Source: Bacteroides intestinalis
GTDB lineage: Bacteria; Bacteroidota; Bacteroidia; Bacteroidales; Bacteroidaceae
Reading direction: 5' to 3'
NCBI RefSeq assembly: GCF_902364365.1
Contig: NZ_CABJDN010000003.1
Location: 124,001 to 188,000, forward strand
DNA: 64,000 bases
Shown one piece after another: positions 4,765 through 63,301 of this stretch. The position numbers and the translations under genes are program-made. Within the stretch, counting starts at the first letter, position 1. Each line of letters begins with the position of its first letter. The notes under the pieces were generated by a model. That model was given only the letters and a program-made list of their open reading frames with translations, was not told the DNA's origin and ran no database searches.

Positions 4765-4780
4765 GGTTTTAAATAATTTA

Positions 4781-6553: not shown

Positions 6554-6563
6554 ATCTATACTT

Positions 6564-9500
6564 TTATAATGAGAAATTAATACCAAAAGTAAACGTACGC
6601 GGTGCCGGAGATAAGGATTCCGGATCCCAATAATTCCATCCTGTTATCAATAAAGGATTAGAAATGTTTATATAAACACGAGCATTGGAGACGCTCCATT
6701 TAGAAGATATTTTATTAGGTATTCTATAAGCTAACGAAACTTCTTGTAAACGTACATACGAACGGTTTTTATAAACATTGAATGACGGAGATTTCGTATT
6801 CGAACCTAAACGTGCAAATTCATTTGTAGGGTTCTCCGGAGTCCAATAATCATATTTATAAGCATTTACGCGGTCATAATAATAATCCGTGGGATGAGTA
6901 TAATGACTATTAGAAGACTTATGTCCAAGATCTGAGCGAATAAAGAATGAAAAGTCCACGCATTTAAAGAACTCCATCGTATTACCAATACCGAATGAAA
7001 AACGAGGACGCTTATGTCCTTGAAATACTTTATCATCTTCCGGTAGATATTCTCCGTCATTATTTACATCCCATATCTTAAAATCACCCGGTTCTTTACC
7101 ATACTTGGCAGCCTCTTCACGTTCATCCTCTTGCCATACTCCCAAAATTTTATAATCATAAATTTCATCTAAAGCATGTCCAATATACCATCCATTCTGA
7201 ATATCATCATCTTCTCTCTGTCCTATTACATTTCCATCTTTATCCAGCACATCTACCATTTCCCCATACAGATGGGCAATTTCATTCCGGTTAAGAGAAG
7301 CAATGAAAGAAGAAGACCATCTGAAATTCTTATGATCGATATTAACTGAATTTAAAGACAATTCAAAACCCTTATTACGAACTTCTCCCAAATTAGTTGT
7401 TACTCCGGAAAAACCAATAATGTCCGGCAAAGAGCGAGTTAACAGCAAATCTTTTGTAGACATATAATAAGCCTCCACTGTTCCATTCAAACGATTACCC
7501 AGAATTGCAAAGTCAAAGCCTATATTATATGCTTCAGTCTTCTCCCATTTCAGGTTTTCATTGGGAAGACGAGTGGCATAAATCCCAATAACTGTACTTC
7601 CGTTATGCAGATATTTCTCCGAATCCAAATTTGCCAAAGCAGCATAACGTCCGATGCTCCGGTTTCCATTGATACCCCAAGATAAACGAAATTTCAAATT
7701 ATCAATCCACGAAATCGCTCTCATGAAATTTTCCTCATTCATTCTCCAACCAAATGCAAATGCAGGGAAATTAGCATATGGATTATTAGAACCAAAAGCC
7801 GAATAACCATCACGCCGGAAAGAAGCAGTAAACAAATAGCGATCCATTAAATTATAGTTCAGTCTTGCCATCATAGCATTTCCCGTATCCACTGTATCAT
7901 CACTCCCTACAACCGGATTCGTACCATTTGCAACAGCATGCCAACCAAGTACTTCAGAAGGAGTAAGATTGGAATTCTCTGCTTTATCAGACCAAGTTTC
8001 ATTTTTTTCAAGATTAAACAAAAGGGTCAAATCAAGCTTATGAATTTTATTGAATGTACGGTTCCATCTCAAAATATTATCAAACATCCAGGAATGAGCA
8101 CTATTATTACGCCTGACGGCATGCCCCTTATACTTTTCACCAGCCATACTGGTAGATGGATCAAAATAATGATTCTTTTGCCAATTGTTATAGTCCGAAT
8201 AGCTCATTTCATAAACGAATCCCCATGGCAATGTAATCTTTGCATTCAATGTAGCATTGAATGTCTGAGTCACATTGAAACGATCACGTTGTTCATAGCT
8301 TGCAAAAGGATTCGTGCTCATATTATCATCATTAGGATAGAACTTCAAAGAACCGTCTTCTTCATATTTACCCCCCCAGGGACTAGCCTGGATAGCTTCT
8401 TCCCAATCAACTTCATCTACACTTTCATTACGAGTGGCATAATGTGCTTGAAAGCCGACCTGAAGCCAATCTGTAACATTTACTTTCAAATTTAAACGCG
8501 AACGGATAGTCTTATATTGGTCTCCTACTACAATACCTTGATTATTAATGCTTCCTAATGACCAATAGTAAGAAACTTTATCATTCTTTCCAGAGATACT
8601 TACATTGTAATCCTGACGCAAAGCGTTTTGAAAAGAGGCATCATACCAATCCGTTTCCCTACCTGCCAGATAATTATCTATTTCTGTAGTAGAAAAGGCT
8701 AAACGATTCAGCCAAATCTCTGCCGGATTTGAATCTGCCGAAGCCCCTGTATACGATAACCAGGTATTCAGATCAACTCCTTGCGGCAAATTGTCCGGAT
8801 TATGGAAGTATCCCAAAGGACGAGATGGATTACTCCGGATTTTTTCATCCCTTCTCATAACCATATATTCCTGCCCATTAAAAGGACGCTGATTACGAGT
8901 CAAATTCTGCATACCTATCTTCATATCAAAATTGATGACAGGCTTTCCTTCATTACCCTGTTTCGTTGATATGACGACCACTCCCGAAGCCGCACGTGAT
9001 CCGTAAACAGCTGCAGAACTACCATCTTTCAAAATATCAATCGTTTCAATATCACTGGGATTGATATCCACCAAATCGCCATTAAAGATAACTCCGTCCA
9101 ATACAATCAGAGGAGAATTACTGGCATTAATGGATTTCTCACCACGAATCAGCATAGAACCACCCCCTTTGGCAGAAGTTCCGAACCCTGCAGAAAATCC
9201 TGCTACCGTACCACGCAGCATTTCAGCTACACTAGTTACCGACTGCGTCGTATTTTCTGTAGAGATGCGGGTTATTGCTCCTGTGAGATCTTTTTTTCTC
9301 ATCGTTCCATAACCAACAACAACAACCTCTTCCAATTGAGCGACATCTTCTTCCAATTCCACATTAATCACATTCTTTCCATTAACCGTAACCTCTTTAG
9401 ACTGATAACCAATAAATGAAAAAACGAGAGTCTCTTTGGAATTTTCCAATGTTAACCGATAATTACCATCAATATCAGTGATAGTACCAGCTATTTTCCC

Positions 9501-9650
9501 TTTCACTTGCACAGTTGCTCCTATGACGCTTTCGCCATTGGATGTTACTTTTCCGGTAACTACAAAATTTTGCGCATAGGCACCTGTTGACCAACTGATT
9601 AAGCTAAAAAACAGGCACAATTTCATAAACAATTTGTGTTTCACATGCAT
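6564..9650 (-). CDS. SusC/RagA TonB-dependent outer-membrane transporter
   Basis: This 1028-residue transporter has a signal peptide (cleavage near residue 27, AYAQ), a carboxypeptidase-regulatory-like domain (about 30-105, ITDIDGNYRL), the SusC signature EEVVVVGYGT, a plug domain (about 115-235), and a 22-strand barrel to the end (TFGINFSL). It has no STN domain, so it does not itself signal to an anti-sigma factor. It imports oligosaccharides with the SusD encoded 10 bases downstream. The lyase-like gene lies 26 bases upstream and the six genes from 14136 to 3667 look like one operon. The sugar is not predictable from the sequence, but the GH105 partner points to a uronic-acid-containing glycan. 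Confidence 0.96.
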   Translation of the reverse strand: MHVKHKLFMKLCLFFSLISWSTGAYAQNFVVTGKVTSNGESVIGATVQVKGKIAGTITDIDGNYRLTLENSKETLVFSFIGYQSKEVTVNGKNVINVELEEDVAQLEEVVVVGYGTMRKKDLTGAITRISTENTTQSVTSVAEMLRGTVAGFSAGFGTSAKGGGSMLIRGEKSINASNSPLIVLDGVIFNGDLVDINPSDIETIDILKDGSSAAVYGSRAASGVVVISTKQGNEGKPVINFDMKIGMQNLTRNQRPFNGQEYMVMRRDEKIRSNPSRPLGYFHNPDNLPQGVDLNTWLSYTGASADSNPAEIWLNRLAFSTTEIDNYLAGRETDWYDASFQNALRQDYNVSISGKNDKVSYYWSLGSINNQGIVVGDQYKTIRSRLNLKVNVTDWLQVGFQAHYATRNESVDEVDWEEAIQASPWGGKYEEDGSLKFYPNDDNMSTNPFASYEQRDRFNVTQTFNATLNAKITLPWGFVYEMSYSDYNNWQKNHYFDPSTSMAGEKYKGHAVRRNNSAHSWMFDNILRWNRTFNKIHKLDLTLLFNLEKNETWSDKAENSNLTPSEVLGWHAVANGTNPVVGSDDTVDTGNAMMARLNYNLMDRYLFTASFRRDGYSAFGSNNPYANFPAFAFGWRMNEENFMRAISWIDNLKFRLSWGINGNRSIGRYAALANLDSEKYLHNGSTVIGIYATRLPNENLKWEKTEAYNIGFDFAILGNRLNGTVEAYYMSTKDLLLTRSLPDIIGFSGVTTNLGEVRNKGFELSLNSVNIDHKNFRWSSSFIASLNRNEIAHLYGEMVDVLDKDGNVIGQREDDDIQNGWYIGHALDEIYDYKILGVWQEDEREEAAKYGKEPGDFKIWDVNNDGEYLPEDDKVFQGHKRPRFSFGIGNTMEFFKCVDFSFFIRSDLGHKSSNSHYTHPTDYYYDRVNAYKYDYWTPENPTNEFARLGSNTKSPSFNVYKNRSYVRLQEVSLAYRIPNKISSKWSVSNARVYINISNPLLITGWNYWDPESLSPAPRTFTFGINFSL

Positions 9651-9676
9651 AGTTATTAATATTTAAATGGTTAATA

Positions 9677-11662
9677 CTAAAACCCTGTGGTTATTTTATA
9701 CTGTATCACATTCTTGTCAGATTCAAAATAAGCGATATCCGCATATCCATTTCTATAGGGAATTCGTTTCTGCTTCCTCTGTATGGTAGCATTTCGAGGT
9801 GATATGGCCTGAAAACAAATTTGACCATCACGAGACTGCAATATCACTTTCCCATTTTGAAAATCAATTTTAGTTTCTTCCATACCATCATTTATTAACA
9901 TGGGGTAACATGCCCGCACCTTCTTTACATTCCCTTTCAGAATATCACGCACAGTAATTCCGGTATGGTCAATATAAACACGTTGTGAAATCTGAGTAAC
10001 CCCATCAAATCTACCAGTATAGATAACTTCAAATGCAACTCCGCCTACAGATTGTCTAATATTCCTCACATCTATTTCAGGAAGCTTACTACCTCCATAT
10101 GCAGAAAAACAAGATGTATTTGGAAATAATATGTTAGTATATTCCGCTAAGCGGTGTATTCCCCCCGTAGCATCATGCCATTCAGGTCCAACTGCATACA
10201 GTTCTCCACCTAAATCCTGCTTCTTCTTGTTATCCCATTTATGGGGAATTCCATCCGAAGGACCTAACTGTGGGTTTGAATTCTTCAGATGAATTCTGAT
10301 GAGTCCTGTTGCATTATAACGAGGATCTCCACTGAGTTCATACTCTACATAGTTTCCGCCAGAATTAGCAAAAACCTTATGGAACACGTCTTTCATAACC
10401 AAAACATATCCACCGATATCAGCTGGAGACGGAGATTCTTTAATAGAATTATCAGCATATAAATAGGCAACACACATTAGCCAGCATGCCAACAGATTAT
10501 ACTGTGATTGCGCTGAATAACTTTCATACCCATGCATCACTTCGATAGGAAAACGGTTTTTCACAATAAATCCGCTTCCATCTTCTCTTATCCATCTTCC
10601 GATGCTCCTAAGTGCTAAATGCGCAGCTCGTTTAAAGGCGCCTGCTTCCTGCTTTTTTCCTAAAGCTGCATATTGTGAAGCGTAAATCTCATAAGTCACG
10701 GCTGCCGCTGCTTCATTCCAGATATGTTGAGCACTTCTGCCGCCTGTCGGCACCTCTCCATAAGGCGATTGCATGAAAAGAGAAGTCCATGCTCCCAAAC
10801 ATAATTTGCGGGAATAAAAATCAAAAAACGTTCCGTTATATCCTTCCGCCAAAATAGAAGCCATAAACTGCCTCGTAAACTCATCATACACCATTGGCGG
10901 ATTAGTCTTATTATCTACATACAAGCCAAAATCAGACATATATTGCTGCTGGTGTTCCAGATGAATATGAAAGAAATCTTTGTGATCGTTGATCCCTTTC
11001 TTTAACCGTAAATATTCACCAGCCAAAGCCACAACATTGTGATTATAACAGATTTTCTTACGCTTCAAGTTATCCCGATATAGCACATACGGATCAATTT
11101 CAGCCATTTTTTCGTGCCAGACAATCATTTGCGCTTCAGAAACCAATCCTTTATAAAGATCCATCGCCAGCATGATAGGCTGAATAAAGAATTCACCATG
11201 GTGATGGGCACACCTGTTCTCATGCATCTCACTCACTGAACAATCCAAAGCCTTTATTCCACTCTTTACCAAAGCATCATCTTTCAAGTATCCCGTTTGA
11301 ACCAGTAACCCTATAGACAGAGCATAGCAAGGAGTCGAGTATTGCCATTCGATTTTATAGACCGGATCAATAATTGCTCCCGTCACTTTATCCTGACAAG
11401 ACGCAAATGCACGAACCTGGCATTCTATCAATCTCAAATATTCATTATTATCTAATCCTGATGATTGAAAATCAACTACCTGCTTCTGGTTCTTTAAAAA
11501 AGTTTCTACCAATTGCCCTAATTGAGGATTATCTTCCCGAATATTTTGTTCAGCCAATAATATATTATTTATATCTCTTAATGAACCAGCATCTACCTTC
11601 GATGCGAATATCAAAAGGCATAAACTGCCCCAAATGATTTTATGTAAAAGCTCCGTTTTCAT
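9677..11662 (-). CDS. Secreted alpha-toroid plus beta-sandwich protein, probable polysaccharide lyase
   Basis: This 661-residue protein has a signal peptide (cleavage near residue 25). The first 400 residues are helix-rich with aromatic and His motifs (CAHHHGEFF near 153, CYNHNVVALAGEY near 205, YESYSAQSQYN near 378), as in an alpha/alpha toroid. The last 230 residues are strand-rich (VSQRVYIDHTG-like region near 560) like the C-terminal sandwich of heparinase-type lyases. I do not recognise the family. Context supports a lyase: a GH105 that consumes lyase products is in the same operon, and no other lyase is visible. Its ATG overlaps the upstream DUF2264 stop as ATGA, so translation is coupled. 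A glycoside hydrolase of similar fold is the main alternative. Confidence 0.65.
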   Translation of the reverse strand: MKTELLHKIIWGSLCLLIFASKVDAGSLRDINNILLAEQNIREDNPQLGQLVETFLKNQKQVVDFQSSGLDNNEYLRLIECQVRAFASCQDKVTGAIIDPVYKIEWQYSTPCYALSIGLLVQTGYLKDDALVKSGIKALDCSVSEMHENRCAHHHGEFFIQPIMLAMDLYKGLVSEAQMIVWHEKMAEIDPYVLYRDNLKRKKICYNHNVVALAGEYLRLKKGINDHKDFFHIHLEHQQQYMSDFGLYVDNKTNPPMVYDEFTRQFMASILAEGYNGTFFDFYSRKLCLGAWTSLFMQSPYGEVPTGGRSAQHIWNEAAAAVTYEIYASQYAALGKKQEAGAFKRAAHLALRSIGRWIREDGSGFIVKNRFPIEVMHGYESYSAQSQYNLLACWLMCVAYLYADNSIKESPSPADIGGYVLVMKDVFHKVFANSGGNYVEYELSGDPRYNATGLIRIHLKNSNPQLGPSDGIPHKWDNKKKQDLGGELYAVGPEWHDATGGIHRLAEYTNILFPNTSCFSAYGGSKLPEIDVRNIRQSVGGVAFEVIYTGRFDGVTQISQRVYIDHTGITVRDILKGNVKKVRACYPMLINDGMEETKIDFQNGKVILQSRDGQICFQAISPRNATIQRKQKRIPYRNGYADIAYFESDKNVIQYKITTGF

Positions 11663-18322: not shown

Positions 18323-21300
18323 TTATCCTTCCTCCACCTGCATCGCCACAATCTCCTGTAAAACGCTAACAGCCGTTTCTACATTCTTCACATCTTTTAC
18401 CAGCATACTGCGACGGGTATTCTGCTCACGCAGATCGCAACGGCGGGTATATTTCATCATATAAGCAATGACTTTACCAAACGCTTGGCTCTGATAGTAC
18501 GGACTATCCGGATTAGAAACAAAGAACAATGACATACGTCCTCCCTTGAGAAAAACCTTCTCTGCACCAAGCCGTGCAGCAAGGCGGCGTAAAGGTACAA
18601 TCCGTAGTAGTTCTTCCGTTTCTGACGGGATAGGACCAAACCGGTCTATAAGACGGGTACGGAAATCCTCCACATCTTTATCCAACGTCAGACTATCTAA
18701 TTCGCGGTAAAGCAACATACGTTCGCTACTACCTGTAACATAAGTGGCAGGAAGCAACAATTCCAGGTCACTCTCTACCTGACATTCATCTACAAATTGC
18801 TCTCCACTGATAACGCCACCCTCCGCTTTCAGTTCTTCGGCATAAAGATCTGCAAATTCGTCCGTCTTCAGTTCATGCACAGCTTCCGACAGTATCTTCT
18901 GATAGGTTTCATAACCCAGATCGGCAATAAAGCCACTCTGTTCCGCACCGAGCATATTGCCTGCACCACGAATATCAAGATCCTGCATGGCTATGTGAAT
19001 TCCACTGCCCAAGTCACTGAAATTCTCAATAGCTTGCAGACGACGCCTTGCTTCAGGAGTCAGGGAAGAAAGCGGAGGAGCCAACAAATAGCAGAATGCT
19101 TTCTTATTGCTTCGTCCTACACGACCACGCATCTGATGCAAATCACTCAGTCCGAAATTCTGTGCCTGATTGATGATAATGGTATTGGCATTCGGAATAT
19201 CAATGCCGCTCTCTATAATTGTAGTGGCTATCAGCACATCATAATCATAATTGACAAAGCCGAAAATAATCTTTTCCAATTCGGTCGGCTCCATTTGTCC
19301 ATGCCCGATGGCTATACGGCAATCCGGAATATGCCGTTCAATCATCGCTTTTAATTCAGGCAAATTAGAAATACGGTTGTTTACAAGAAAGACCTGTCCG
19401 TTCCGGCTCATTTCAAAGTTAATAGCATCCACTATAACTTCCTCATTAAAGGTATGCACTTCAGTCTGAATAGGATAACGGTTTGGAGGAGGCGTTTGAA
19501 TAACGCTCAGGTCACGCGCCCCCATTAATGAGAACTGCAATGTACGCGGAATAGGCGTGGCCGTCATGGTCAAGGTGTCTACATTGACCTTCAACTGGCG
19601 CAACTTCTCCTTAACGGATACACCGAACTTCTGTTCTTCATCAATAATCAGCAACCCCAAGTCCTTGAATTGTATGTCCTTACCCAAAATCCGATGTGTA
19701 CCGATAAGTATATTCACATCACCTGCCGCCAATCCTTTTACGACCGCTTTTGCCTGAGCTGCCGTACGGGCACGACTCAGGTACTCCACCCTACAAGGCA
19801 AATCTTTCAAACGCTCTTTAAACGTCTGGAAATGTTGGTAAGCCAACACGGTGGTAGGTACCAGAACCGCTACCTGTTTATTGTCCGCCACAGCTTTAAA
19901 AGCAGCACGAACTGCCACTTCTGTTTTACCAAACCCCACGTCTCCACAAACCAGACGGTCCATAGGACGGTTACTTTCCATATCCGCTTTTACATCCGCC
20001 GTTGCTTTACTTTGGTCTGGTGTATCTTCGTAAATAAAAGATGCTTCCAGTTCCCGTTGCAAGAAACTATCCACACTGAACTGAAAACCTTTTTCCTCAC
20101 GACGTTGAGAATACAATTTTATGAGGTCACGTGCAATATCCTTAATTTTGGTCTTAGTACGCTCTTTAAGTTTCTCCCAGGCTCCCGTACCCAATTTATT
20201 CAAACGGGGAGCCTCACCATCTTTTCCTTTATACTTTGAAACTTTATGTAATGAATGGATAGAAACAAAAACGACATCTTCATTCTGATAAACCAGTTTC
20301 ATCACTTCCTGCGTTGTATCACCGTTAGGAATACGCACCAATCCGGAAAAGCGCCCCACACCATGATCGGTATGTACCACGTAATCTCCCGGTGTAAACT
20401 GATTCAACTCTTTCAGACTCAGAGCAACCTTGCCACTACGTGCTTTATCACTTTTGAGATTATATTTATGAAAACGGTCGAATAACTGATGATCCGTAAA
20501 AATGCAAAGCCGCAAGGCATTATCGGCAAAACCTTCATGCAACGTGCGCTCTACAGCTGTAAAAGCAATCTCTTCTCCCCTGTCTTCAAAAATGGCACGA
20601 ATACGGTCAGTCTGCTTCATGCTGTCACTACAAATGTAAAGCGTATACCCTTTCTCCATATACTCTTTGAAGCTTTCGGCCACCATATCAAAGTTTTTAT
20701 GGAATATAGGCTGGGCAGACGTATCGAATGTCACCGTAGCATCCGGAGTTCCAGTTGGTTTGTTACCGAACTCCATACGGCAAAAGTCCAATGCACGAAG
20801 CGTAAACTCACTTCCATCAATCAGCTTTCCATCCAAAGTAATACAACCACTTTCTTCCGCTTCGCGGGCTGCAATCGCTTGTGGGGTAAGTGTTTCATCG
20901 TGTACAGTCTGGATACGTTCACGCAGCCAAAGCAGATCACGCATTGCCAATACAGTATTCGCCGAGAGAAAATCCAGGAAGGAAACCATACCGCTTGCAT
21001 CCCCCTGTTCCAAACTACGGCTCAAATCCGGCACGATAACAATACTGTCTTTCTTTTCTTTAGAAAGTTGCGTTTCTACTTCAAACGTACGGATACTTTC
21101 TACTTCATCACCAAAAAAGTCTATACGATATGGAAATTCGGAAGAGAAAGAAAATACATCGATGATACTACCACGTACAGCATACTGTCCCGGCTCATAG
21201 ACATAGTCCACATACTCAAAACCATAGCTACGCAAGACTTCCGTAATAAAATTCGTATCCACATTTTCCCCTGTATGCAATTTCAGAGTTTTATCTCCCA

Positions 21301-21718
21301 GTTCCTTCCGGGAAACCACCTTTTCTGCCAAAGCATCGGGATAAGTCACAACACAAAGTCCTTTCTCCCCTTTTTGTAAGCGGCTCAACACTTCTGTACG
21401 CAGAATTTCATTGGCCGCATCTTTCTGTCCGTATTTTATTGCCCTACGAAATGAAGAAGGAAAGAACAAAACTTTCTCAGTCCCCAATACTTGTGTTAAA
21501 TCATGGTAAAAATATCCCGCCTCTTCCAGATCGCCCAGAATAAAAACAAAAGGAAACTCTCCGCGTTGCACCAGCACGGACGAAAATAATGAAGCGGCAG
21601 AGGCACACAGCCCCCCGCAAAAAAGGGTGCGGACAGACGGATTCTTCAGCAGGCCACTTATAGCTTCCACATTGGGGTGAGTGGCATATCGTTGTTGTAG
21701 CTCGGTAATTGTCATCAT
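18323..21718 (-). CDS. mfd: Transcription-repair coupling factor Mfd
   Basis: This full-length 1131-residue Mfd is a DNA translocase that removes stalled RNA polymerase and recruits UvrA. The UvrB-like N-terminal part (about 1-440) is followed by the RNA polymerase-interacting domain (YVVHTDHGVGRF near 460). RecG-like helicase motifs are present: Walker A GDVGFGKTE near 600, the DEEQ box in LIIDEEQKFG, TMTATPIPRT, and the TRG motif region with QMRGRVGRS. A C-terminal UvrA-binding domain ends the protein. It begins with tandem ATG codons at 21718 and 21715; either could be used. It faces the HTCS gene and diverges from the glycosyltransferase gene. Confidence 0.97.
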   Translation of the reverse strand: MMTITELQQRYATHPNVEAISGLLKNPSVRTLFCGGLCASAASLFSSVLVQRGEFPFVFILGDLEEAGYFYHDLTQVLGTEKVLFFPSSFRRAIKYGQKDAANEILRTEVLSRLQKGEKGLCVVTYPDALAEKVVSRKELGDKTLKLHTGENVDTNFITEVLRSYGFEYVDYVYEPGQYAVRGSIIDVFSFSSEFPYRIDFFGDEVESIRTFEVETQLSKEKKDSIVIVPDLSRSLEQGDASGMVSFLDFLSANTVLAMRDLLWLRERIQTVHDETLTPQAIAAREAEESGCITLDGKLIDGSEFTLRALDFCRMEFGNKPTGTPDATVTFDTSAQPIFHKNFDMVAESFKEYMEKGYTLYICSDSMKQTDRIRAIFEDRGEEIAFTAVERTLHEGFADNALRLCIFTDHQLFDRFHKYNLKSDKARSGKVALSLKELNQFTPGDYVVHTDHGVGRFSGLVRIPNGDTTQEVMKLVYQNEDVVFVSIHSLHKVSKYKGKDGEAPRLNKLGTGAWEKLKERTKTKIKDIARDLIKLYSQRREEKGFQFSVDSFLQRELEASFIYEDTPDQSKATADVKADMESNRPMDRLVCGDVGFGKTEVAVRAAFKAVADNKQVAVLVPTTVLAYQHFQTFKERLKDLPCRVEYLSRARTAAQAKAVVKGLAAGDVNILIGTHRILGKDIQFKDLGLLIIDEEQKFGVSVKEKLRQLKVNVDTLTMTATPIPRTLQFSLMGARDLSVIQTPPPNRYPIQTEVHTFNEEVIVDAINFEMSRNGQVFLVNNRISNLPELKAMIERHIPDCRIAIGHGQMEPTELEKIIFGFVNYDYDVLIATTIIESGIDIPNANTIIINQAQNFGLSDLHQMRGRVGRSNKKAFCYLLAPPLSSLTPEARRRLQAIENFSDLGSGIHIAMQDLDIRGAGNMLGAEQSGFIADLGYETYQKILSEAVHELKTDEFADLYAEELKAEGGVISGEQFVDECQVESDLELLLPATYVTGSSERMLLYRELDSLTLDKDVEDFRTRLIDRFGPIPSETEELLRIVPLRRLAARLGAEKVFLKGGRMSLFFVSNPDSPYYQSQAFGKVIAYMMKYTRRCDLREQNTRRSMLVKDVKNVETAVSVLQEIVAMQVEEG

Positions 21719-41763: not shown

Positions 41764-42157
41764 GAGGTCAATTCAGGGGTCAGGGTCACCTATACCCCCG
41801 CATTTTACTCAAATGGAAAGAGTGATTGCATCCCATGTCAAGAAATATTCCGTATAGAAGTACCTACTAAATAAACGCTCAACAGGCAGACAGATAAAAC
41901 AGAAAACTAATCTATAAAATAAGCCTTATTCTTCCCAAAAACTTTTACATATACCAAGGCCACACAATATCGTTTTTTTACCCATAAAGAATCATCAAAA
42001 CTATGTAGATTGCCAATATATCAAAATAGATTCCAAAGCGATATTCAGCACACAAGCAAATATCCATCTCGCTGTACAACAACAACATACCAATATCAAA
42101 AGAATATTTTCATCTACGAGTGGGGTTATAGGTGACCCTGACCCTAACTTGACCCCC
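41764..42157. repeat. Inverted repeats bounding about 320 bp
   Basis: The 18-mer GGGTCAGGGTCACCTATA lies at 41777-41794 and, inverted, at 42127-42144. Similarity extends over about 37 bases, including further GGTCA words. The pair could be the ends of a decayed small mobile element or paired protein-binding sites. No gene lies between them. Confidence 0.6.
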
Positions 42158-55855: not shown

Positions 55856-57706
55856 TTATTGTTGTTTAGAATCCCACCATACTTGCAATGTACAAATAAC
55901 ATTACTATTATACCATCCATCACCAAGTTCAGCCGCACCAGGAACTTCAGCGCCAATTGCAGAAAGATTCTTAGTATTGTAGGTCAGTTCAAACGAAGCC
56001 TGTTTCCAACGACGAGGATATTCACCTTCAGGACAGTAAGTAAAGCCAGCGGGAGTATTCCGGTAATAATAGGATTTATCCCAATTCATGAATACATCAG
56101 TATCGTAGTCATAACGGCGCATATCGTTCCAGTTCTCATTAGAAAAAGGCATTGCAAGCATTTTCTGAGTCAAAATCTTACCAATAGTAAGGTCATTAGC
56201 AGTTCCCAGACCATTGTTCAGGAAATCATCAATTTCCACTTGCTCAATATGGGTAAATGATGGACAAGAAGTCAAATTCGCATCTTCAGAAGTCCATACA
56301 CCAATCTGATCATTAACAGCATCAATGCTTGCTTTTACGCCTTCCTTGTAAGCGGTGAATGCACCATCCCTGTTACCCTGGCGGAAAAGTACCTCGGCTT
56401 TAATGAAACAGGCCTCAGCATAAGAAGCCATAAACGTAGGACTTGTGGGACGAGCATAGAATACCCCACTGAGTGCGGAACGATCATAACTTTTATTGCG
56501 CCGGTAGAGAATATCAACACCACCCGCATATCCAGTTCCACCACAAGTAGTCCACACATAAATCGTATCGCCTTGACGAGACGGGCTGTCGCAATACCAA
56601 GTCTGAGTAGTAGCATTGAACGATAATGCATAAGGTCCCGACTGACTCAAAATATCGGTTTGCATATCAACGCCCATCGAACGACGCCACTTGCCGTCAT
56701 CTGACCATTTGATATCAGCAGGAGTGGTAACACCCTTTTCAGAACGAGCCCAAGGAATAAATTTGTCAGCACGCGGATCTTCTACACCCCTACCGTCAAA
56801 GTTTGTCAAATTATCATAGTAACACTTAGTGATGTAAATATTACTATTCATGCCAATACAAGAATAAAGAGCTGAATAGTCCACCGGTTCATTCCATCCT
56901 AATACATCATGAGAAGGTGTATTGGTATCTGTGTGCCTGATGAGAGTGTTATCGGCATTACTTTGCTGAGCCTTAGCCAGACAGCTAAGAATCTCTTGGG
57001 CATCGTACTTACCTTCTTTGTAGCTACCACTTTCCTTTTTAATCAAATGATTCAGCCAACGGGCTTTGAGAAGATAGCACATTTTAAGCCACTTAGTTGC
57101 ATCACCTCCATTCCAGCAGTCACCTTCAGCCAATGATACAGGAGTGATACCATTTACCACTTCTTGTTGCCTGGAAAATAAATCAATGGCCTCATCAATA
57201 TCAGTAATACAACCGAGAAATATCGTTTTGCCATTATCATAAACAGGAGAAGGATTATCACCAAATGCGTCAGTATAAGGTATCTCACCAAATAAATCTG
57301 TAAGCATCATAAAACCATAAGCCCGGAAAAACTTGGCAGCTCCGGCATAATGATAAGCACCTGCCTCCATCGCTTGATTGTACAAGTCATTACAATTCAC
57401 ACCTACTTGAGTAAAGAACCATTGCTGTGCGTTTACTGCACGTGTTGAAGAGCCTAATTGCCATTTTGCAGCTCCCCCTTCACGTTCGTTGTTACGATAA
57501 AAATGACCGCAATAGAAACTTGAATTAGAAGCAACAATATGGTAGATATGGCTCATATAATATTGCATCCAAGGCATGCGCTGATGAAATTCAGCATCAG
57601 TAGATATAGGAGTATTCGGATTGGTGTTGACATCAAGCCAATCGGTACATGCAGAAAGAGAAATACAAACTGCCACTCCGAGGATTATTTTCTTATATAG
57701 TTTCAT
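55856..57706 (-). CDS. SusD/RagB family lipoprotein of the invertible locus
   Basis: This 616-residue protein is of the SusD-like type with a lipoprotein signal ending in LSAC (residue 20), DWLDVNTNPNTP after it, and TPR-like helical repeats (AGAAKFFRAYGFMMLTDLFGEIPY). It partners the SusC encoded 34 bases upstream. No glycosidase or lyase gene is in the operon, so the nutrient could be a peptide, vitamin or glycan. Its expression depends on the SusC promoter, which appears to be in the inverted OFF state. Confidence 0.93.
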   Translation of the reverse strand: MKLYKKIILGVAVCISLSACTDWLDVNTNPNTPISTDAEFHQRMPWMQYYMSHIYHIVASNSSFYCGHFYRNNEREGGAAKWQLGSSTRAVNAQQWFFTQVGVNCNDLYNQAMEAGAYHYAGAAKFFRAYGFMMLTDLFGEIPYTDAFGDNPSPVYDNGKTIFLGCITDIDEAIDLFSRQQEVVNGITPVSLAEGDCWNGGDATKWLKMCYLLKARWLNHLIKKESGSYKEGKYDAQEILSCLAKAQQSNADNTLIRHTDTNTPSHDVLGWNEPVDYSALYSCIGMNSNIYITKCYYDNLTNFDGRGVEDPRADKFIPWARSEKGVTTPADIKWSDDGKWRRSMGVDMQTDILSQSGPYALSFNATTQTWYCDSPSRQGDTIYVWTTCGGTGYAGGVDILYRRNKSYDRSALSGVFYARPTSPTFMASYAEACFIKAEVLFRQGNRDGAFTAYKEGVKASIDAVNDQIGVWTSEDANLTSCPSFTHIEQVEIDDFLNNGLGTANDLTIGKILTQKMLAMPFSNENWNDMRRYDYDTDVFMNWDKSYYYRNTPAGFTYCPEGEYPRRWKQASFELTYNTKNLSAIGAEVPGAAELGDGWYNSNVICTLQVWWDSKQQ

Positions 57707-57740
57707 ATTAGATTTGATTTTTCTTGTAGTTAAACAATAT

Positions 57741-60700
57741 TTAGAAGGTCAGATTAACACCAAAGGAGAAACTTGCTGTTGAAGGAACACCACAATAGTC
57801 TATACCTACCGAAGATGAACCAACTGCACCTGAACCGGCCGCTGCAACTTCGGGGTCACCATCATAGTTGGTAAAGAGAAGAAGATTATTGGCGGTAGCT
57901 GTAATCGAAGCACGTTTAAGAACTTTTATCTTAGCAAGTAAAGCCTTTGGAAAATCGTATGAGAGTGAGATCGTACGCAGACGGAGCGCATTGACTTTCG
58001 TCATAAAATTTGCAGCTTCATAAGGATAAATATCCTGATAGTAATTGGCTATAATTGTTTTACCACTCGTTTCTTTACCATTGTAGATGTATGTTTTACC
58101 AGCCTCAAATGTATTAGTTACGAATTCGCCGGCTGTATTTACACCCGATACTTCAATCTTTTCACGATTAGCCGAAAGTTCGCTCACGCCCGCACCTGTC
58201 ATAGCATATTGTGTTCCATTGTACACATGTCCTCCTACACGGAAATCCCACAGCATATTAAGTGAGAGTCCTTTATATGATATTGTATTATTCCAACCAC
58301 CGGCAAACTTAGGTTCGCGATTACCAATTTCAAGATTTTTATTAGTATTTTTGTCAGGAAGACCATTCTTATCAAGCATAACGCGCCCCTGATCATCGCG
58401 CTTCCATTCGCTACCTGCAATTGCCATGAAGTTACCATCAGGAAACGATGCCGCTTTAGCATTGCCTACCTGCACATCGGTTACATAAAGAATTTCTACA
58501 CCTTCCATCAAATTCTTGACAGTGCCACGGTTACCACTCACATTAAGCGTAGATTCCCAACTCCAGTCTTTGGTAAGAATCGGAGTACCACCAATGCTGA
58601 GCTCCATACCTTTATTATATACATCACCCGCATTTACTGAGCGCAGAATATAGCCTGTTGCATTAGATAAACGAGGTGACATTATTTGGTCATAAGAGTT
58701 ATTAGTATAAAACGCATAGTCGAATTTCAAACGATTGTTGAAAAAGCGCAATTCAAGACCAATTTCTGTAGATTCAGTAATCTCAGGTTTCAATGCAGCA
58801 TTGCCCGCTTGCCAGTAATTACTAACACCTGTAAAACCTCCAAGGAATGATTGGCTCGGCCACAATGCAGTGTCCAATGAATATGGGCTTGTATCTTTAC
58901 CTACACGCGCCCAACTCGCACGAATTCTACCAAAAGATAACCAGTCTGATTTGGGAAGAAATTCCGTAAATACAACGCTACCACTTACAGATGGATAGAA
59001 ATAAGAGCGATTTTCAACAGGCAGCGTAGAAGACCAGTCGTTACGGCCAGATACAGTCAGAAACAAAGTACTTTTCCAGTCTGCACGAAATTCACCGAAC
59101 ACACCTACAAGGCGTTTTTGAGAACGTGCACTTGAGAAATTACGATTCTCACTTGTAGCATTATCAAACGCATAAAAATTAGGAACCTCAAAATTCCAAG
59201 CCATCCGGTAATTAGACCACGTACGAGTATCATCGGTAGAAGTACCCAACATCAAATTAAAATTAAAGTTTCCGAATTGCTTAGCAAAGTTTGTCATCAA
59301 ATTGGTAGAAAGATATTTGTAACGATAAGAATTTTCACTATACATGCCTTTTTGCCATTGTAGTTTATAAACACCACCAGCCCCAAGTGTATTTGAATTG
59401 TCAGTAGTATATGAGTCAATTCCCATGCGATAGCTAATCCACCACCAATCTGTAATATCAGCCTTGACATTGAAGTTACCAGTGAAACGCTCAGTATTAT
59501 CTTTCATCTTATTCTTATTTAGAATCCAATAAGGATTAGTACGCTCATCAACCACATCAAGGCGATCGCCGAACATACGATATCGAGTACCATCTTCATT
59601 CAGATAATGGGTCATATCATCAGTGGGTGACCAACGGTATACGCTTGTCATTGTGCCCGAACCATCCGAACCATAAAGTCCTGCCGAAGTCAGAGTCTTA
59701 TCGGTATTTGCCTGAGAATATGCCACATTTGCACCAAAAGTGAATATTTTCCACTTTTGCTCACCATTGAAACGGAATGTTGCTTTTTCATAACCCGTGG
59801 TTGGAATAATGCCATCTTGATTATAATAAGAACCCGAGAGATAAAAACTACTATTTTTAGAACCTCCAGCTACACTTACATTGGTATCCCAAGCACCGCC
59901 TTGTTGGAAGAAATCACCGATATTGTCATAAATGGGAGTACCATCCGTTATGGTCTCTCCCCAGGAGTTATAACTAAAGTCATTATAGGTCGTCCCGGTA
60001 TATTTACCATCCGTATATTGGTCTTCAGCAAAACCTCTTTTATATCTATTCTGTACTTTAGGAAGATACTTAGCCCATTGGGTAATATATTTAGTGGAGA
60101 AATTTACCTCAACGGCACCTTCTTTTCCTTTTTTAGTAGTAATGATAACAACGCCCGCAGCAGCACGAGAACCATAAAGTGCGGCGGCAGCAGGACCTTT
60201 AAGGACTGACATATTCTCAATATCCTCCGGATTGATATCCATTACACGATTTGATTGCGTAGAAGACGTCGATGTACTACCATCAAAAGCAGAGTTACCA
60301 ACCACTGTAGTAGAATTATCATAGATTACACCATCCACAACAAAAACCGGTTGATTATCACGTTCAAGCGAAGTACCGCCACGAAGGATGATTTGAGAAC
60401 CTGAACCAGCAGCACCACCACTTTGCGTAATATTAACACCAGCAATCTTACCTGCCAAAGAGTTAATAGGGTTTACACTCTTATTTTTCATAAGTTCTTC
60501 TGCATTCACATCATCAATGGCATAACCTAAAGATTTTCTCTCTCTTTTAATACCCATTGCCGTTACAACAACTTCATTCAATGTTTGTGAATCATCCTGC
60601 ATAGTCACTGCATAAGAAGAAGCATTTGTAACTTTAACCTCTACAGTTCTATAACCAACGAAAGATACTACTAATGTGTTACCCACTGAAACATCAACCG

Positions 60701-60872
60701 AAAAATCGCCATCAAGATTAGTCACAGCACCCGTACCGGTATCCTTTACCAATACGCTGGCACCAATGATCGGTTCACCTGTCGCATCTACGACCTTACC
60801 TGTGATTTTCTTTGCTTGTTGAGTACTTTGGGAACTTGGCGTAAGAAAATCATGCAGGAATATACTGGACAC
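57741..60872 (-). CDS. SusC/RagA transporter lacking its signal peptide (OFF orientation)
   Basis: This 1043-residue SusC-type TonB-dependent transporter has a carboxypeptidase-regulatory domain (about 23-97, DLDGDFSVDV), the signature LNEVVVTAMGI, a plug domain (about 105-225) and a barrel ending in FSFGVNLTF. The N-terminus is abnormal: the only start is a GTG at 60872 with stop codons just upstream. The first 11 residues are not a signal peptide, and no TAnnTTTG promoter is seen. From residue 12 (PSSQ) the frame matches a leader at 61465-61578 that lies inverted. After inversion of 60841-61556 the protein would be 1063 residues with a perfect signal peptide. The gene is intact but probably silent as sequenced. 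Confidence 0.92.
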   Translation of the reverse strand: MSSIFLHDFLTPSSQSTQQAKKITGKVVDATGEPIIGASVLVKDTGTGAVTNLDGDFSVDVSVGNTLVVSFVGYRTVEVKVTNASSYAVTMQDDSQTLNEVVVTAMGIKRERKSLGYAIDDVNAEELMKNKSVNPINSLAGKIAGVNITQSGGAAGSGSQIILRGGTSLERDNQPVFVVDGVIYDNSTTVVGNSAFDGSTSTSSTQSNRVMDINPEDIENMSVLKGPAAAALYGSRAAAGVVIITTKKGKEGAVEVNFSTKYITQWAKYLPKVQNRYKRGFAEDQYTDGKYTGTTYNDFSYNSWGETITDGTPIYDNIGDFFQQGGAWDTNVSVAGGSKNSSFYLSGSYYNQDGIIPTTGYEKATFRFNGEQKWKIFTFGANVAYSQANTDKTLTSAGLYGSDGSGTMTSVYRWSPTDDMTHYLNEDGTRYRMFGDRLDVVDERTNPYWILNKNKMKDNTERFTGNFNVKADITDWWWISYRMGIDSYTTDNSNTLGAGGVYKLQWQKGMYSENSYRYKYLSTNLMTNFAKQFGNFNFNLMLGTSTDDTRTWSNYRMAWNFEVPNFYAFDNATSENRNFSSARSQKRLVGVFGEFRADWKSTLFLTVSGRNDWSSTLPVENRSYFYPSVSGSVVFTEFLPKSDWLSFGRIRASWARVGKDTSPYSLDTALWPSQSFLGGFTGVSNYWQAGNAALKPEITESTEIGLELRFFNNRLKFDYAFYTNNSYDQIMSPRLSNATGYILRSVNAGDVYNKGMELSIGGTPILTKDWSWESTLNVSGNRGTVKNLMEGVEILYVTDVQVGNAKAASFPDGNFMAIAGSEWKRDDQGRVMLDKNGLPDKNTNKNLEIGNREPKFAGGWNNTISYKGLSLNMLWDFRVGGHVYNGTQYAMTGAGVSELSANREKIEVSGVNTAGEFVTNTFEAGKTYIYNGKETSGKTIIANYYQDIYPYEAANFMTKVNALRLRTISLSYDFPKALLAKIKVLKRASITATANNLLLFTNYDGDPEVAAAGSGAVGSSSVGIDYCGVPSTASFSFGVNLTF

Positions 60873-61575
60873 TTATTACTTATCACATTCTAAAAAGAAT
60901 TTATTTATTTATTTTACTATTTACTTAATAGTCTGACATTTACTTTACAACACACGACAAATAAATAAATTCACCTATGAATTATATATTACCCAAAACA
61001 GATAATCTTATTTAATAGATTAATATTTCTTCGCCCTTTTAATTAATAATCTAACATTAATATTTCCCTTAATTAAGGGAAAACGATAGTCATATTTTCA
61101 GATATTATTCTTTAATTTCTACCATTCTCTATTTCCATTTTCAGAAATAATATATATAAAACATAAAATTCTCCATACATACAGTTATACGAATAATATC
61201 AAATAGACAGACAAACGATATCATATTACTAAATATAGTTACATATATCCTTATTTAAACATTAATATAATGCTAATATCAATATATTAAAATCAAATAA
61301 AGCTTCAAACGAGTCAATATATTATATATTGATACGATAATCTATAGTTTACTAAAGCATAAAAATAGATATTTTAATATTCACTTACATATTTTTAATA
61401 CAACTCATTCGGTAAATATTAAATTTATTTATATATTTGCAAATAAATCCAAATTATAGAGCTTATGAAAAACAATTATTACTTATCATTAGTATTGCTT
61501 GCATTATTTGGGATATCTTCTCCATACTCAGCTAAAGCTTACAATGGAGGTTATGTGCCAAGTTCCCAAAGAACT
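60822..61575. other. Invertible DNA segment controlling SusC
   Basis: The core repeat GCCAAGTTCCCAAAG lies at 61557-61571 and, inverted, at 60826-60840. It extends to 18 of 19 bases when the adjoining ACT is included. The 716 bases between contain only a promoter (61432-61439) and a leader peptide frame (61465-61578), both pointing away from SusC. The repeats sit in the same codon phase in the leader and in SusC, so inversion joins them without a frameshift. No recombinase gene lies nearby; an enzyme encoded elsewhere must act. Confidence 0.85.
61432..61439 (+). promoter_or_regulatory. Promoter inside the invertible segment
   Basis: TATATTTG matches TAnnTTTG and lies 25 bases before the leader ATG at 61465. 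In the present orientation it transcribes the short leader and then runs antisense into the transglutaminase-like gene. In the other orientation it would drive SusC-SusD. Confidence 0.7.
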
Positions 61576-61578
61576 TAA
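61465..61578 (+). CDS. Detached signal peptide of the SusC gene
   Basis: This 37-residue frame reads as a signal peptide (MKNNYYLSLVLLALFGIS, cleavage after SAKA at 25) followed by YNGGYVPSSQ and a stop just beyond the inverted repeat. The last five residues before the stop region are identical to SusC residues 12-15 in frame. It is not a real independent gene but the missing 5' end of SusC in the opposite orientation. Confidence 0.85.
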   Translation: MKNNYYLSLVLLALFGISSPYSAKAYNGGYVPSSQRT

Positions 61579-61654
61579 CCTAATACTTTAAGAAACTCTT
61601 TGATGTATTTTTCGTCAACAGCTTTAAATTGCACATTCATTCAACAAGTTTTGC

Positions 61655-62857
61655 TTATTTTCCAATAGGCTGTATCTTCCTTCTCACATCCTTAGAAATC
61701 TCCAAAAACATGTAATTCAATTTCCCGGAATGTATTCCTTCTTCATTTTGCTTATACTTATTATTAGCGTATTGCTTAGACTTATCGAATGTTAGCCGTG
61801 ACATTTGATTCTGTGATTTACCTACCATCGTTGAATCCAGCTTCTCATCCGGAAAGAAATCATCCAGATCCACATCTCCAATCATAGTAGTTTCAAGGAA
61901 GTTCATATTCTTGCGACCGGCATCCGTATAATACCCCACAAACATGTGTCCCGGAGTACGAACCAATATAGGTTCTATATTAATGGCACGAAGCAAGGAA
62001 GCAAACAGCACGCTACCATCCACACAGTTAATCTGCGAAGACTCCAGTGCATCATCGAACGTACGGACCCGCTGGGAAAAGACTACATTACTGGACAAAC
62101 TGGTATTGGAAACGGAACTGTAACGGAAATTACGCTTTTGAAGCACATTCCATAAAGCATAGACTTGCTTGTCCACCACTTCAGCATTGCCACCCTGATA
62201 GCCCAAGAAACGATTGACAATGCGTGTATTCAGTGCTTCACGCAACAATTTGTCAATCATCGGATTCTCCTCATTAACGTATGCCGCAAAGAAAATTCCT
62301 GTATCATGAAACTTAGTCCCATTCGTAACATACCCCAACAAGCACTCATTAATGCTGCGGACAGAAAAAGTACGAACCCGCTGCCCCAAATCCTTATCAT
62401 TCATTTCTACCTTTACAGCCACACTAACCGGTTCCGCCTGGTTATTATTCTTCAGCGCTTCGTAATTCCAGATAATATCGGGATAAATCGTATATTCCGT
62501 CCGTGGTTTAGCCAACACAAACTCTGATACGGAACGGGAAAAGAACGGAGTTTCAGAAACTTCAATACGTACCCTGCTATACGCCTTCCCCGAACGAATC
62601 CGGATAGAAATACAGGATTTAGAATTACCTACATATAAGGAATCAGCCGGAACTATGACTTGCGCATCCGTCGTCGCTACAGAAAGAATGCTGGAAGGAA
62701 AGATGTTGCCTCCCAACTCATCCGTTATCTCAAAACCGGAACGGAACGGAGCTGTATTCAGCCAAAAGGAACCTGCCACAACAATCACCAACAGACCCGT
62801 CAAGATAGAAATACGCCATTTATGACGCTGAAAATCAATACTTGCCAATTCCTTCAT
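61655..62857 (-). CDS. Membrane-anchored transglutaminase-like protein
   Basis: This 400-residue protein has one N-terminal membrane helix (about 15-35) and a large outer domain. The C-terminal half has a transglutaminase/papain-like core: Cys in QINCVDGSVLFASLLR near 277, His in TPGHMFVGYY and an acidic residue in FLETT. The N-terminal outer part is beta-rich (about 50-170). It could cleave or crosslink peptides in the periplasm. In the present orientation of the upstream segment its 3' end is exposed to antisense transcription. A promoter box TAAATTTG lies at 62882-62889, 25 bases before the ATG. Confidence 0.8.
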   Translation of the reverse strand: MKELASIDFQRHKWRISILTGLLVIVVAGSFWLNTAPFRSGFEITDELGGNIFPSSILSVATTDAQVIVPADSLYVGNSKSCISIRIRSGKAYSRVRIEVSETPFFSRSVSEFVLAKPRTEYTIYPDIIWNYEALKNNNQAEPVSVAVKVEMNDKDLGQRVRTFSVRSINECLLGYVTNGTKFHDTGIFFAAYVNEENPMIDKLLREALNTRIVNRFLGYQGGNAEVVDKQVYALWNVLQKRNFRYSSVSNTSLSSNVVFSQRVRTFDDALESSQINCVDGSVLFASLLRAINIEPILVRTPGHMFVGYYTDAGRKNMNFLETTMIGDVDLDDFFPDEKLDSTMVGKSQNQMSRLTFDKSKQYANNKYKQNEEGIHSGKLNYMFLEISKDVRRKIQPIGK

Positions 62858-63301
62858 ATTATTATATGTTTATCTTAAATACAAATTTACTGAAAAATCC
62901 TCGGATTTCTCACACTTCATGCCAGATTTAAAAGTCCGCTCCACATTTTGCTCCACATTTTTTTCTTGAGAGTCATTTTTAAGAATATTCTCCCCTCATT
63001 TCCTCTTCGCTGTATAATTGGTTCTTTCTCATAGCAAATTCGGTTTATTATCGTAAAATATATATTTCAACCGAATTTACCATATCTTCATTCCCTGCTA
63101 TACAACTATCATTTTTTTGTTTCTTTGCATTGGATTGAATTTCTATTTTCATCCTGTAAAAGCAAAAATGTAACCAAATTGTAACACGTGTTTCACTTTC
63201 CCGTAACAAAAACACCGCACCTTTGTCGCTGAAAAGAAATAAAGTATAACTTTGTGGTAGGAGAATTTGTTTTGAATACCTCATATTAATTAGAAAAAGC
63301 A
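62858..63301. other. Divergent intergenic region
   Basis: No gene is seen in this tract. It holds the minus-strand box TAAATTTG (62882-62889), a perfect 10-bp inverted repeat AAATTCGGTT (63036-63045) with AACCGAATTT (63069-63078), and the response-regulator promoter. The repeat could be an operator for either neighbour. Confidence 0.6.
63222..63254 (+). promoter_or_regulatory. Complete promoter of the response-regulator gene
   Basis: TTTG (63222-63225), a 21-base spacer and TAACTTTG (63247-63254) match the consensus, 47 bases before the ATG at 63302. Confidence 0.75.

What the first reader, a model, noticed from the sequence alone, without database searches (positions are those of the whole stretch)
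60822..61578. Invertible segment carrying a promoter and the signal peptide of a SusC transporter
SusC (57741-60872) has no signal peptide or promoter in this orientation. A complete signal peptide with its own TAnnTTTG promoter lies on the opposite strand 0.6 kb upstream. Leader and SusC both contain GCCAAGTTCCCAAAG in inverted orientation and in the same codon phase. Inverting the 716-bp interior would give a 1063-residue secreted SusC with the leader fused in frame at PSSQ. Phase-variable SusC genes are known in Bacteroides; here the switch moves both promoter and start of the protein, and the sequenced clone appears to be OFF.
Basis: partly seen in the sequence, partly recalled or inferred. 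Interest (0 to 1): 0.93.

Follow-up and report, generated by a model that had tools for sequence, protein, structure and literature searches.

The report
Flip switch for a nutrient transporter
In this gut Bacteroides a 0.7-kb DNA segment between two inverted repeats carries the promoter motif and predicted secretion signal that a neighbouring outer-membrane nutrient transporter (SusC) lacks; flipping the segment would join them in frame and likely turn the transporter on, and related species carry the segment in both orientations, some of them between two transporters.

Summary
Arms at 60818-60840 and 61557-61579 (21 of 23 inverted, 716 bp between) flank a segment whose promoter box and 37-residue leader ORF point away from a SusC that is complete except for its signal peptide. 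In-silico inversion gives one 1063-aa ORF. Relatives add the main evidence: 12 loci (window plus 11 of 33 genomes examined) keep the arm pair, and in each pair the central five bases match although five centre variants exist between species. One-SusC loci are OFF in the window, G037 and G102 and ON in G014 and G026; five loci have, or keep a remnant of, a second SusC across the segment. B. timonensis AP1 contigs stop at both arms and the segment is missing. Leaderless SusC genes of window and G102 show dN/dS 0.067. All arms fit AGTYYYN4GDACT, recalled by me as the B. fragilis Tsr0667 site; in the window it matches only the arms. No tyrosine recombinase was found in the window, so one likely acts in trans. 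SusC switching by inversion is known; I file this as a new member. Flipping within one strain was not shown: no reads were available.

The parts
60818..60840 (.). proximal arm, inside the 5' part of the susC frame; holds the 15-mer AGTTCCCAAAGTACT (60822-60836, minus)
61557..61579 (.). distal arm, in the last codons of the leader ORF; holds the 15-mer AGTTCCCAAAGAACT (61561-61575, plus)
60841..61556 (.). 716-bp segment predicted to invert
   Evidence: orientation compared in relatives
61432..61439 (+). TATATTTG, fits the Bacteroides promoter consensus TAnnTTTG; predicted promoter of the leader
   Evidence: present 33-35 nt before the ATG in 13 of the 14 loci aligned, of 16 loci given to the script; consensus as printed in PMC4747536 (passage)
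61465..61578 (+). leader ORF, 37 codons and stop; predicted signal peptide MKNNYYLSLVLLALFGISSPYSAKA plus linker
57741..60872 (-). susC, leaderless in this orientation; TIGR04056 SusC/RagA, PF13715, PF07715, PF00593
55856..57706 (-). susD-like lipoprotein gene (PF12771), predicted to be co-expressed with susC
61655..62857 (-). 400-aa gene (TG400 in the scripts), flank marker on the far side of the distal arm; not part of the switch

Best explanation
The 716-bp segment between the two arms is likely an invertible cassette whose flipping, predicted to be done by a tyrosine recombinase encoded elsewhere in the genome, would give the leaderless SusC its promoter and signal peptide or take them away. 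In the sequenced orientation the promoter box and leader point away from susC and the leader ORF ends inside the distal arm (the sequence shows this), so SusC would be neither transcribed from that promoter nor exported (inferred: OFF). Inversion at the AGTTC-CCAAA-GWACT sites joins leader and SusC in frame into a 1063-aa protein (shown in silico). The junction lies between the predicted cleavage site of the signal peptide and the first recognised domain (PF13715 from residue 23 of the ORF), so switching should leave the folded transporter unchanged (inferred). In some relatives the same cassette lies between two divergent SusC-SusD pairs and would serve one or the other (frame shown in silico for G002; switching inferred). 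Loss of the second pair would leave the one-sided ON/OFF switch seen here (inferred; G045 looks like an intermediate).
For: Anatomy and in-frame product. Paired sites: 12 loci of 34 examined (window plus 33 genomes) keep two arms; in 12 of 12 pairs the central five bases are the same in both arms, while five centres exist between species: CCAAA in 8 pairs, CCAGA, TCAAA, TGAAG and CCGGA in one each (for 11 pairs, for G003). Orientation: OFF in window, G037, G102; ON in G014, G026; two-SusC forms in G002, G006, G059, G081 and, as a remnant, G045. The AP1 assembly ends at both arms and lacks the segment, while G102, whose SusC is 99.7% identical, has it. The exact 15-mer AGTTCCCARAGWACT occurs in 7 of 12 genomes exactly twice, at the arms. 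The recalled site motif AGTYYYN4GDACT matches in the window only at the two arms (3 matches at 2 positions, 0.49 expected). Selection: dN/dS 0.067 between the leaderless genes of window and G102.
Against: No reads and no second orientation for this species; P0001, one residue different, is leaderless too. The OFF gene of G037 is frameshifted (404 codons), so are one silent copy in G059 and both copies in G081, as if switching had stopped there. 23 of 30 leader-fused SusC rows have no partner arm, so the locus is fixed ON in most relatives examined. Contig breaks at the arms in AP1 and G045 have other possible causes. No recombinase was tied to the site. The site motif is recalled, not read. 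dS between window and G102 is near saturation (0.97). The exact repeat is short (6 of 1000 shuffles reach it).
Confidence: 0.86

Rival explanations
1. A past inversion that is now fixed: the cassette was turned away from SusC once in this lineage and no longer flips; SusC is on its way to becoming a pseudogene.
For: G037's OFF gene and some silent copies in G059 and G081 are broken; window, G037, G102 and P0001 are all OFF; most leader-fused relatives have no second arm.
Against: The window gene is open over its whole length and window and G102 genes, both leaderless, differ with dN/dS 0.067; matched centres in 12 of 12 pairs, including pairs whose distal arm lies outside any SusC frame.
Confidence: 0.09
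2. The arms recombine only rarely and by general homologous recombination, with no dedicated recombinase; the orientation differs between species but is stable within a strain.
For: No recombinase was tied to the site and no tyrosine recombinase was found in the window.
Against: The arms are short (13-23 exact nt in most pairs, 11 in G002), the ends AGTTC/GWACT of the site stay while the centre varies in step, and all 24 arms fit one dyad motif (G003's two arms read from its 15-mers), as recombinase sites do.
Confidence: 0.03
3. SusC is made from its own upstream start and the leader ORF is an unrelated small secreted peptide; the repeats are coincidental.
For: A GTG start exists at 60872; the leader is a closed ORF of 37 codons in this orientation.
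Against: No export signal in the 12 codons before the arm, no shared start among the six leaderless genes compared, and the leader block with its TAnnTTTG is fused in frame to SusC in 30 SusC rows of relatives.
Confidence: 0.01
4. Assembly artefact: the segment was joined the wrong way round in this record and the true locus is always ON.
For: Assemblers do stumble at inverted repeats; AP1 and G045 break there.
Against: G037 and G102, on single contigs of 6.4 and 6.9 Mb, have the same OFF layout, and P0001 from another sequence set is leaderless as well. The short arms are shorter than common read lengths.
Confidence: 0.01

Closest known systems
Tsr0667-controlled inversions at SusC/SusD loci of Bacteroides fragilis (Nakayama-Imaohji 2009; its abstract recalled, paper not held; described in PMC4747536, passages)
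   Same: SusC/SusD targets, inversion between short dyad repeats, recombinase that may act far away; both window arms and those of the other 11 loci fit the consensus AGTYYYN4GDACT that I recall from the abstract.
   Different: PMC4747536 speaks of shufflon-type multiple inversions at three clusters and nine other regions; here one small cassette with promoter and leader flips at one conserved locus. No Tsr0667 sequence was at hand, so orthology was not tested.
Intergenic shufflon EE of B. fragilis NCTC 9343 (PMC5729914, passages; PMC3090145, passages)
   Different: There, as described, large segments with whole gene pairs move behind an invertible promoter; here the gene pairs stay and the promoter with the signal peptide moves.
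Inverton group 131 of the hCom2 community (PMC11892184, passages)
   [quoted passage not shown] a member in B. cellulosilyticus DSM 14838 shifted orientation over mouse generations.
   Different: Called from reads and described as promoters; the passages seen do not speak of moved signal peptides. Whether that B. cellulosilyticus inverton is this locus could not be checked (supplements not open to me).
Bacteroides capsule promoters inverted by Mpi (PMC4747536 and PMC12632263, passages)
   Same: Promoter inversion as an ON/OFF switch of a surface structure.
   Different: Serine recombinase, other repeats (as printed in PMC8375218, passage), and only the promoter moves.
Intragenic DNA inversions (Chanin 2024, title seen in reference lists only, not held)
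   Same: Inversion changes the coding sequence of a gene.
   Different: Here the inverted DNA supplies the promoter and the start of the protein. Comparison is from recall.

Membership tests
Tsr0667-type SusC/SusD invertible region | two inverted sites fitting AGTYYYN4GDACT (consensus recalled from the 2009 abstract) | tested here: met
   only matches in the window are the two arms; both arms fit in all 12 loci. The consensus itself comes from recall; no held paper prints it
Tsr0667-type SusC/SusD invertible region | controls a SusC/SusD family gene pair | tested here: met
   TIGR04056 and PF12771
Tsr0667-type SusC/SusD invertible region | inversion is carried out by Tsr0667 or an orthologue | tested here: inconclusive
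   no tyrosine recombinase in the window by a profile built here; recombinases of four site-bearing genomes clustered but none tied to the site; no Tsr0667 sequence to compare
Phase-variable inverton | both orientations occur in one strain | not testable with these tools
   no reads; both orientations seen only between species, with indirect signs in AP1 and G045
Phase-variable inverton | segment carries an outward promoter (TAnnTTTG) | tested here: met
   motif only: 13 of 14 loci aligned, G001 lacks it; activity not measured
SusC/RagA TonB-linked outer membrane protein | full-length SusC/RagA body | tested here: met
   TIGR04056 689 bits, cut-off 368, profile 1-981 of 981; TIGR04057 signature
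SusC/RagA TonB-linked outer membrane protein | signal peptide in the same reading frame | tested here: not met
   absent in the present orientation, judged by eye; restored by in-silico inversion
Shufflon (multiple inversion system) | more than two sites giving several alternative products | tested here: not met
   two sites in the window; two-SusC relatives also have two sites, three copies in G045 being split by a scaffold gap

The most novel reading that the evidence does not exclude
A genus-wide two-way selector: one flipping cassette with a promoter and a signal peptide decides which of two complete SusC-SusD systems is exported, and where one system was lost, as in this window, the remnant became an ON/OFF switch. 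The export signal is a shared part that recombination hands from one transporter to another.
Probability: 0.4. Interest if true: 0.65.

Novelty: new member of a known kind. Interest (0 to 1): 0.45.

Why it matters
It shows, on a natural series of species, how a transporter switch is built and lost: sites that change in step, a crossover placed in a linker so that the folded protein is spared, and forms that look like two-way selector, ON/OFF switch and fixed ON. Annotation pipelines will call such genes leaderless or partial, and one assembly freezes one state. B. stercorirosoris DSM 26884, a culture-collection strain, carries the two-way form with both SusC frames open, so switching between two transporters can be tested directly.

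Tried and rejected
Naming the recombinase: PF00589 matches of five genomes (133 listed) were fetched in full for G037, G102 and G014, all but four for G154, and only the six given as loci for G155. Clustering found several groups with reciprocal best hits in all four site-bearing genomes, among them a XerD-type protein (over the NCBIfam cut-off) and two groups of about 400 aa; nothing ties any of them to the site, so none is named. A first filter by motif was too narrow (17 proteins) and was replaced by an iterated profile (107 proteins).

Same-strain orientation: two protein searches with ON-form queries list 120 of several thousand hits and show cluster representatives whose members cannot be opened, so ON forms of this species may be hidden in the cluster of P0001 (49 members). 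P0002 has the leader fused to a SusC 97.5% identical to G102's leaderless one, but its leader differs at 11 of 31 positions from G102's: near relatives in both states, not one flip.

RNA families: none over the gathering score in 57000-63300. The sigma-70 scan of the region gave 10 promoter-like sites against 8.4 expected, no support. A real start at 60872 was rejected. An artefact of one assembly was rejected. G128 and G135 were looked at and not counted: their contigs do not show an arm at the end. G158 and G005, with two leader-bearing SusC genes each, were not counted as switches: their inverted repeats of 47 and 37 nt are shared coding sequence, and G158's site has C at a position where the motif excludes it. 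A first script missed leaders and second sites in some loci because of search settings (G154; G006 and G026 variants); one search replaced it. G006's second arm was read one base off and corrected. Papers not held: Nakayama-Imaohji 2009, Cerdeno-Tarraga 2005, a 2023 survey of gene-altering inversions, Porter 2020, Chanin 2024; so I do not claim that a moving signal peptide is absent from print (text searches).

Full report
What is there. The window is Bacteroides DNA from a species for which no whole genome is held. At the long ORF 18323-21718 (reads like the repair gene mfd; my label) the closest of ten relatives reach 85% DNA identity. SusC (57741-60872, minus) and SusD (55856-57706, minus) have, upstream of SusC, an AT-rich segment of 716 bp between two arms, then a 400-aa gene (61655-62857, called TG400 here) that serves as flank marker. 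SusC covers the whole TIGR04056 profile from residue 21: only the signal peptide is missing. The missing part lies on the other strand at the far end of the segment: a TATATTTG box, then MKNNYYLSLVLLALFGISSPYSAKAYNGGYVPSSQRT and a stop inside the distal arm. Inverting the interior joins PSSQ to STQQ in one 1063-aa ORF.

More than chance. The repeat by itself is only fairly unlikely: 6 of 1000 dinucleotide shuffles of the local 2.5 kb hold an exact inverted 15-mer at this range of distances, and the window holds two other such pairs. A pattern taken from the arms is found twice in the window against 0.05 expected, but that is circular. A motif that does not come from this sequence does better: AGTYYYN4GDACT, which I recall from an abstract as the consensus of Tsr0667-controlled sites in B. 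fragilis, matches in 64 kb only at the two arms (3 matches at 2 positions; 0.49 expected). It is recalled, not read, and a text search found no held paper that prints it.

Relatives. SusC relatives came from named contigs (80 kept of 148 confirmed; 47 of the 80 were inspected upstream). The region was searched in 158 genomes of the genus: 102 match the query, which includes the flank gene TG400, and 43 match the segment of G102, many only weakly. I examined the window and 33 genomes at the locus, not all that matched. Paired arms are kept in the window and 11 of the 33 genomes: G037, G102, G003, G002, G045, G081, G059, G006, G154, G014, G026. In all 12 pairs both arms have the same central five bases, while the centre differs between species: CCAAA (8 pairs), CCAGA, TCAAA, TGAAG and CCGGA (one each). 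Strand exchange between the arms would keep them alike; coding constraint cannot, where the distal arm lies outside any SusC frame (7 of 12: window, G037, G102, G003, G154, G014, G026). Segment lengths between the 15-mers run from 446 to 2068 bp. The exact 15-mer AGTTCCCARAGWACT was counted in 12 genomes: in seven (G037, G102, G003, G002, G081, G154, G014) it occurs twice, only at the arms; G045 has three copies, all at the locus; G155 one, at its fused SusC; G158 one, elsewhere; G059 (whose arms carry a variant centre) and G013 none.

Both orientations. With one SusC, the leader points away in the window, G037 and G102, and is fused in frame, with both arms kept, in G014 and G026. G154 is also fused, but carries identical 227-bp promoter-leader copies at both ends of the segment around an ISL3-type transposase gene, so either orientation would be ON. 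In B. timonensis AP1 (G003) two contigs stop at the two arms and the segment is found nowhere in the assembly, while G102, whose SusC is 99.7% identical, has it OFF. In G045 a scaffold gap begins at the arm. Such breaks are what a mixed population would give, but they are indirect. P0001, one residue different from the window's SusC, is leaderless too.

Two-way form. In B. stercorirosoris DSM 26884 (G002) the cassette lies between two divergent SusC-SusD pairs: the leader is fused to one, and inversion would fuse it in frame to the other (1078 aa). G006, a metagenome-assembled Bacteroides, has the same layout with both SusC frames open (1042 and 1033 codons from the arm). In G059 the leader-bearing SusC is open and the silent one broken; in G081 both are broken. 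G045 keeps the second arm with only a remnant of the second SusC. The window form looks like the end of that series (inferred, no tree was made). G013 has neither SusC, SusD nor segment between the neighbouring genes. Most other relatives examined have the leader fused and no second arm: fixed ON.

Is the OFF gene alive? Window and G102 genes, both leaderless as sequenced, differ with dN 0.065, dS 0.97, dN/dS 0.067 (dS near saturation), so both have been under selection, which implies expression at times (inference). Against this, G037's OFF gene is frameshifted (404 codons) and so are some other copies. Among the SusC rows, 9 of 11 leaderless ones have a partner arm (without: G003, cut at its contig end, and a distant 44% copy in G035) against 7 of 30 leader-fused ones; G045's first row counts as leaderless only because a gap parts it from its leader, and G002's two rows are counted, since its arms share only 11 exact bases.

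How it works. Shown: anatomy, matched sites, in-frame products, both orientations among relatives. Inferred: inversion in living cells; a tyrosine recombinase acting in trans (no ORF of 80 aa or more in the window matched a profile built here from 107 recombinases; serine recombinases were not searched by profile); promoter activity (the box is conserved in 13 of 14 loci aligned); signal-peptide cleavage; loss of SusC export in OFF. In OFF the cassette would still encode a 37-residue peptide, whose use, if any, is unknown.

Against the known. SusC/SusD phase variation by inversion is established in B. fragilis (PMC4747536 and PMC12632263, passages), with repeats overlapping susC start codons (PMC5729914, passages). 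Inversions of whole TonB-transporter clusters were seen in B. intestinalis (PMC8375218, passages), invertible regions near susC/susD homologues change with gut inflammation (PMC10939037, passages), and invertons next to TonB receptor and SusD genes form the largest Bacteroidota group in a defined community (PMC11892184, passages). I therefore file this as a new member of a known kind. The small moving leader and the two-SusC selector may be a new variant; the papers that would decide this were not readable here.

Noticed in passing
L131 (G154) 4514-6489: The segment carries perfect 227-bp inverted copies of promoter and leader at both ends around an ISL3-type transposase gene, so flipping would no longer change anything: a switch apparently disarmed by duplication.
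   Followed up: partly
window 41777-41794 and 42127-42144: An 18-nt inverted repeat about 330 bp apart in a gene-free stretch; may be another invertible element or the ends of a mobile remnant.
   Followed up: no
window 55072 and 56658: An exact inverted 15-mer (CGTTGATATGCAAAC) 1.6 kb apart, one copy downstream of susD and one inside it; may be chance.
   Followed up: no
G081 contig C129, 18502 (minus) and 20196 (plus): A second inverted pair of the same site family (AGTTCCCGGAGAACT, 1.7 kb apart) away from this locus, so the recombinase may serve more than one region.
   Followed up: no
L123 (G013) 8457-10813: In this near relative the two neighbouring genes lie side by side with no SusC, SusD or segment between them: the whole cassette comes or goes as one unit.
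   Followed up: partly
L139 (G158) 8555-9320 and L291 (G005) 6370-7508: Two divergent SusC genes, each with its own leader: possibly a selector turned into two constant genes.
   Followed up: partly
window 61655-62857: TG400 has no Pfam match and a weak partial match to the NCBIfam model of the anti-phage protein ProA (87.6 bits, cut-off 1500), so it is not a member; its function is open.
   Followed up: no
window 61063-61082: A terminator-like palindrome in the segment (1 found, 0.2 expected) which in the OFF orientation would face read-through from TG400 towards susC.
   Followed up: no
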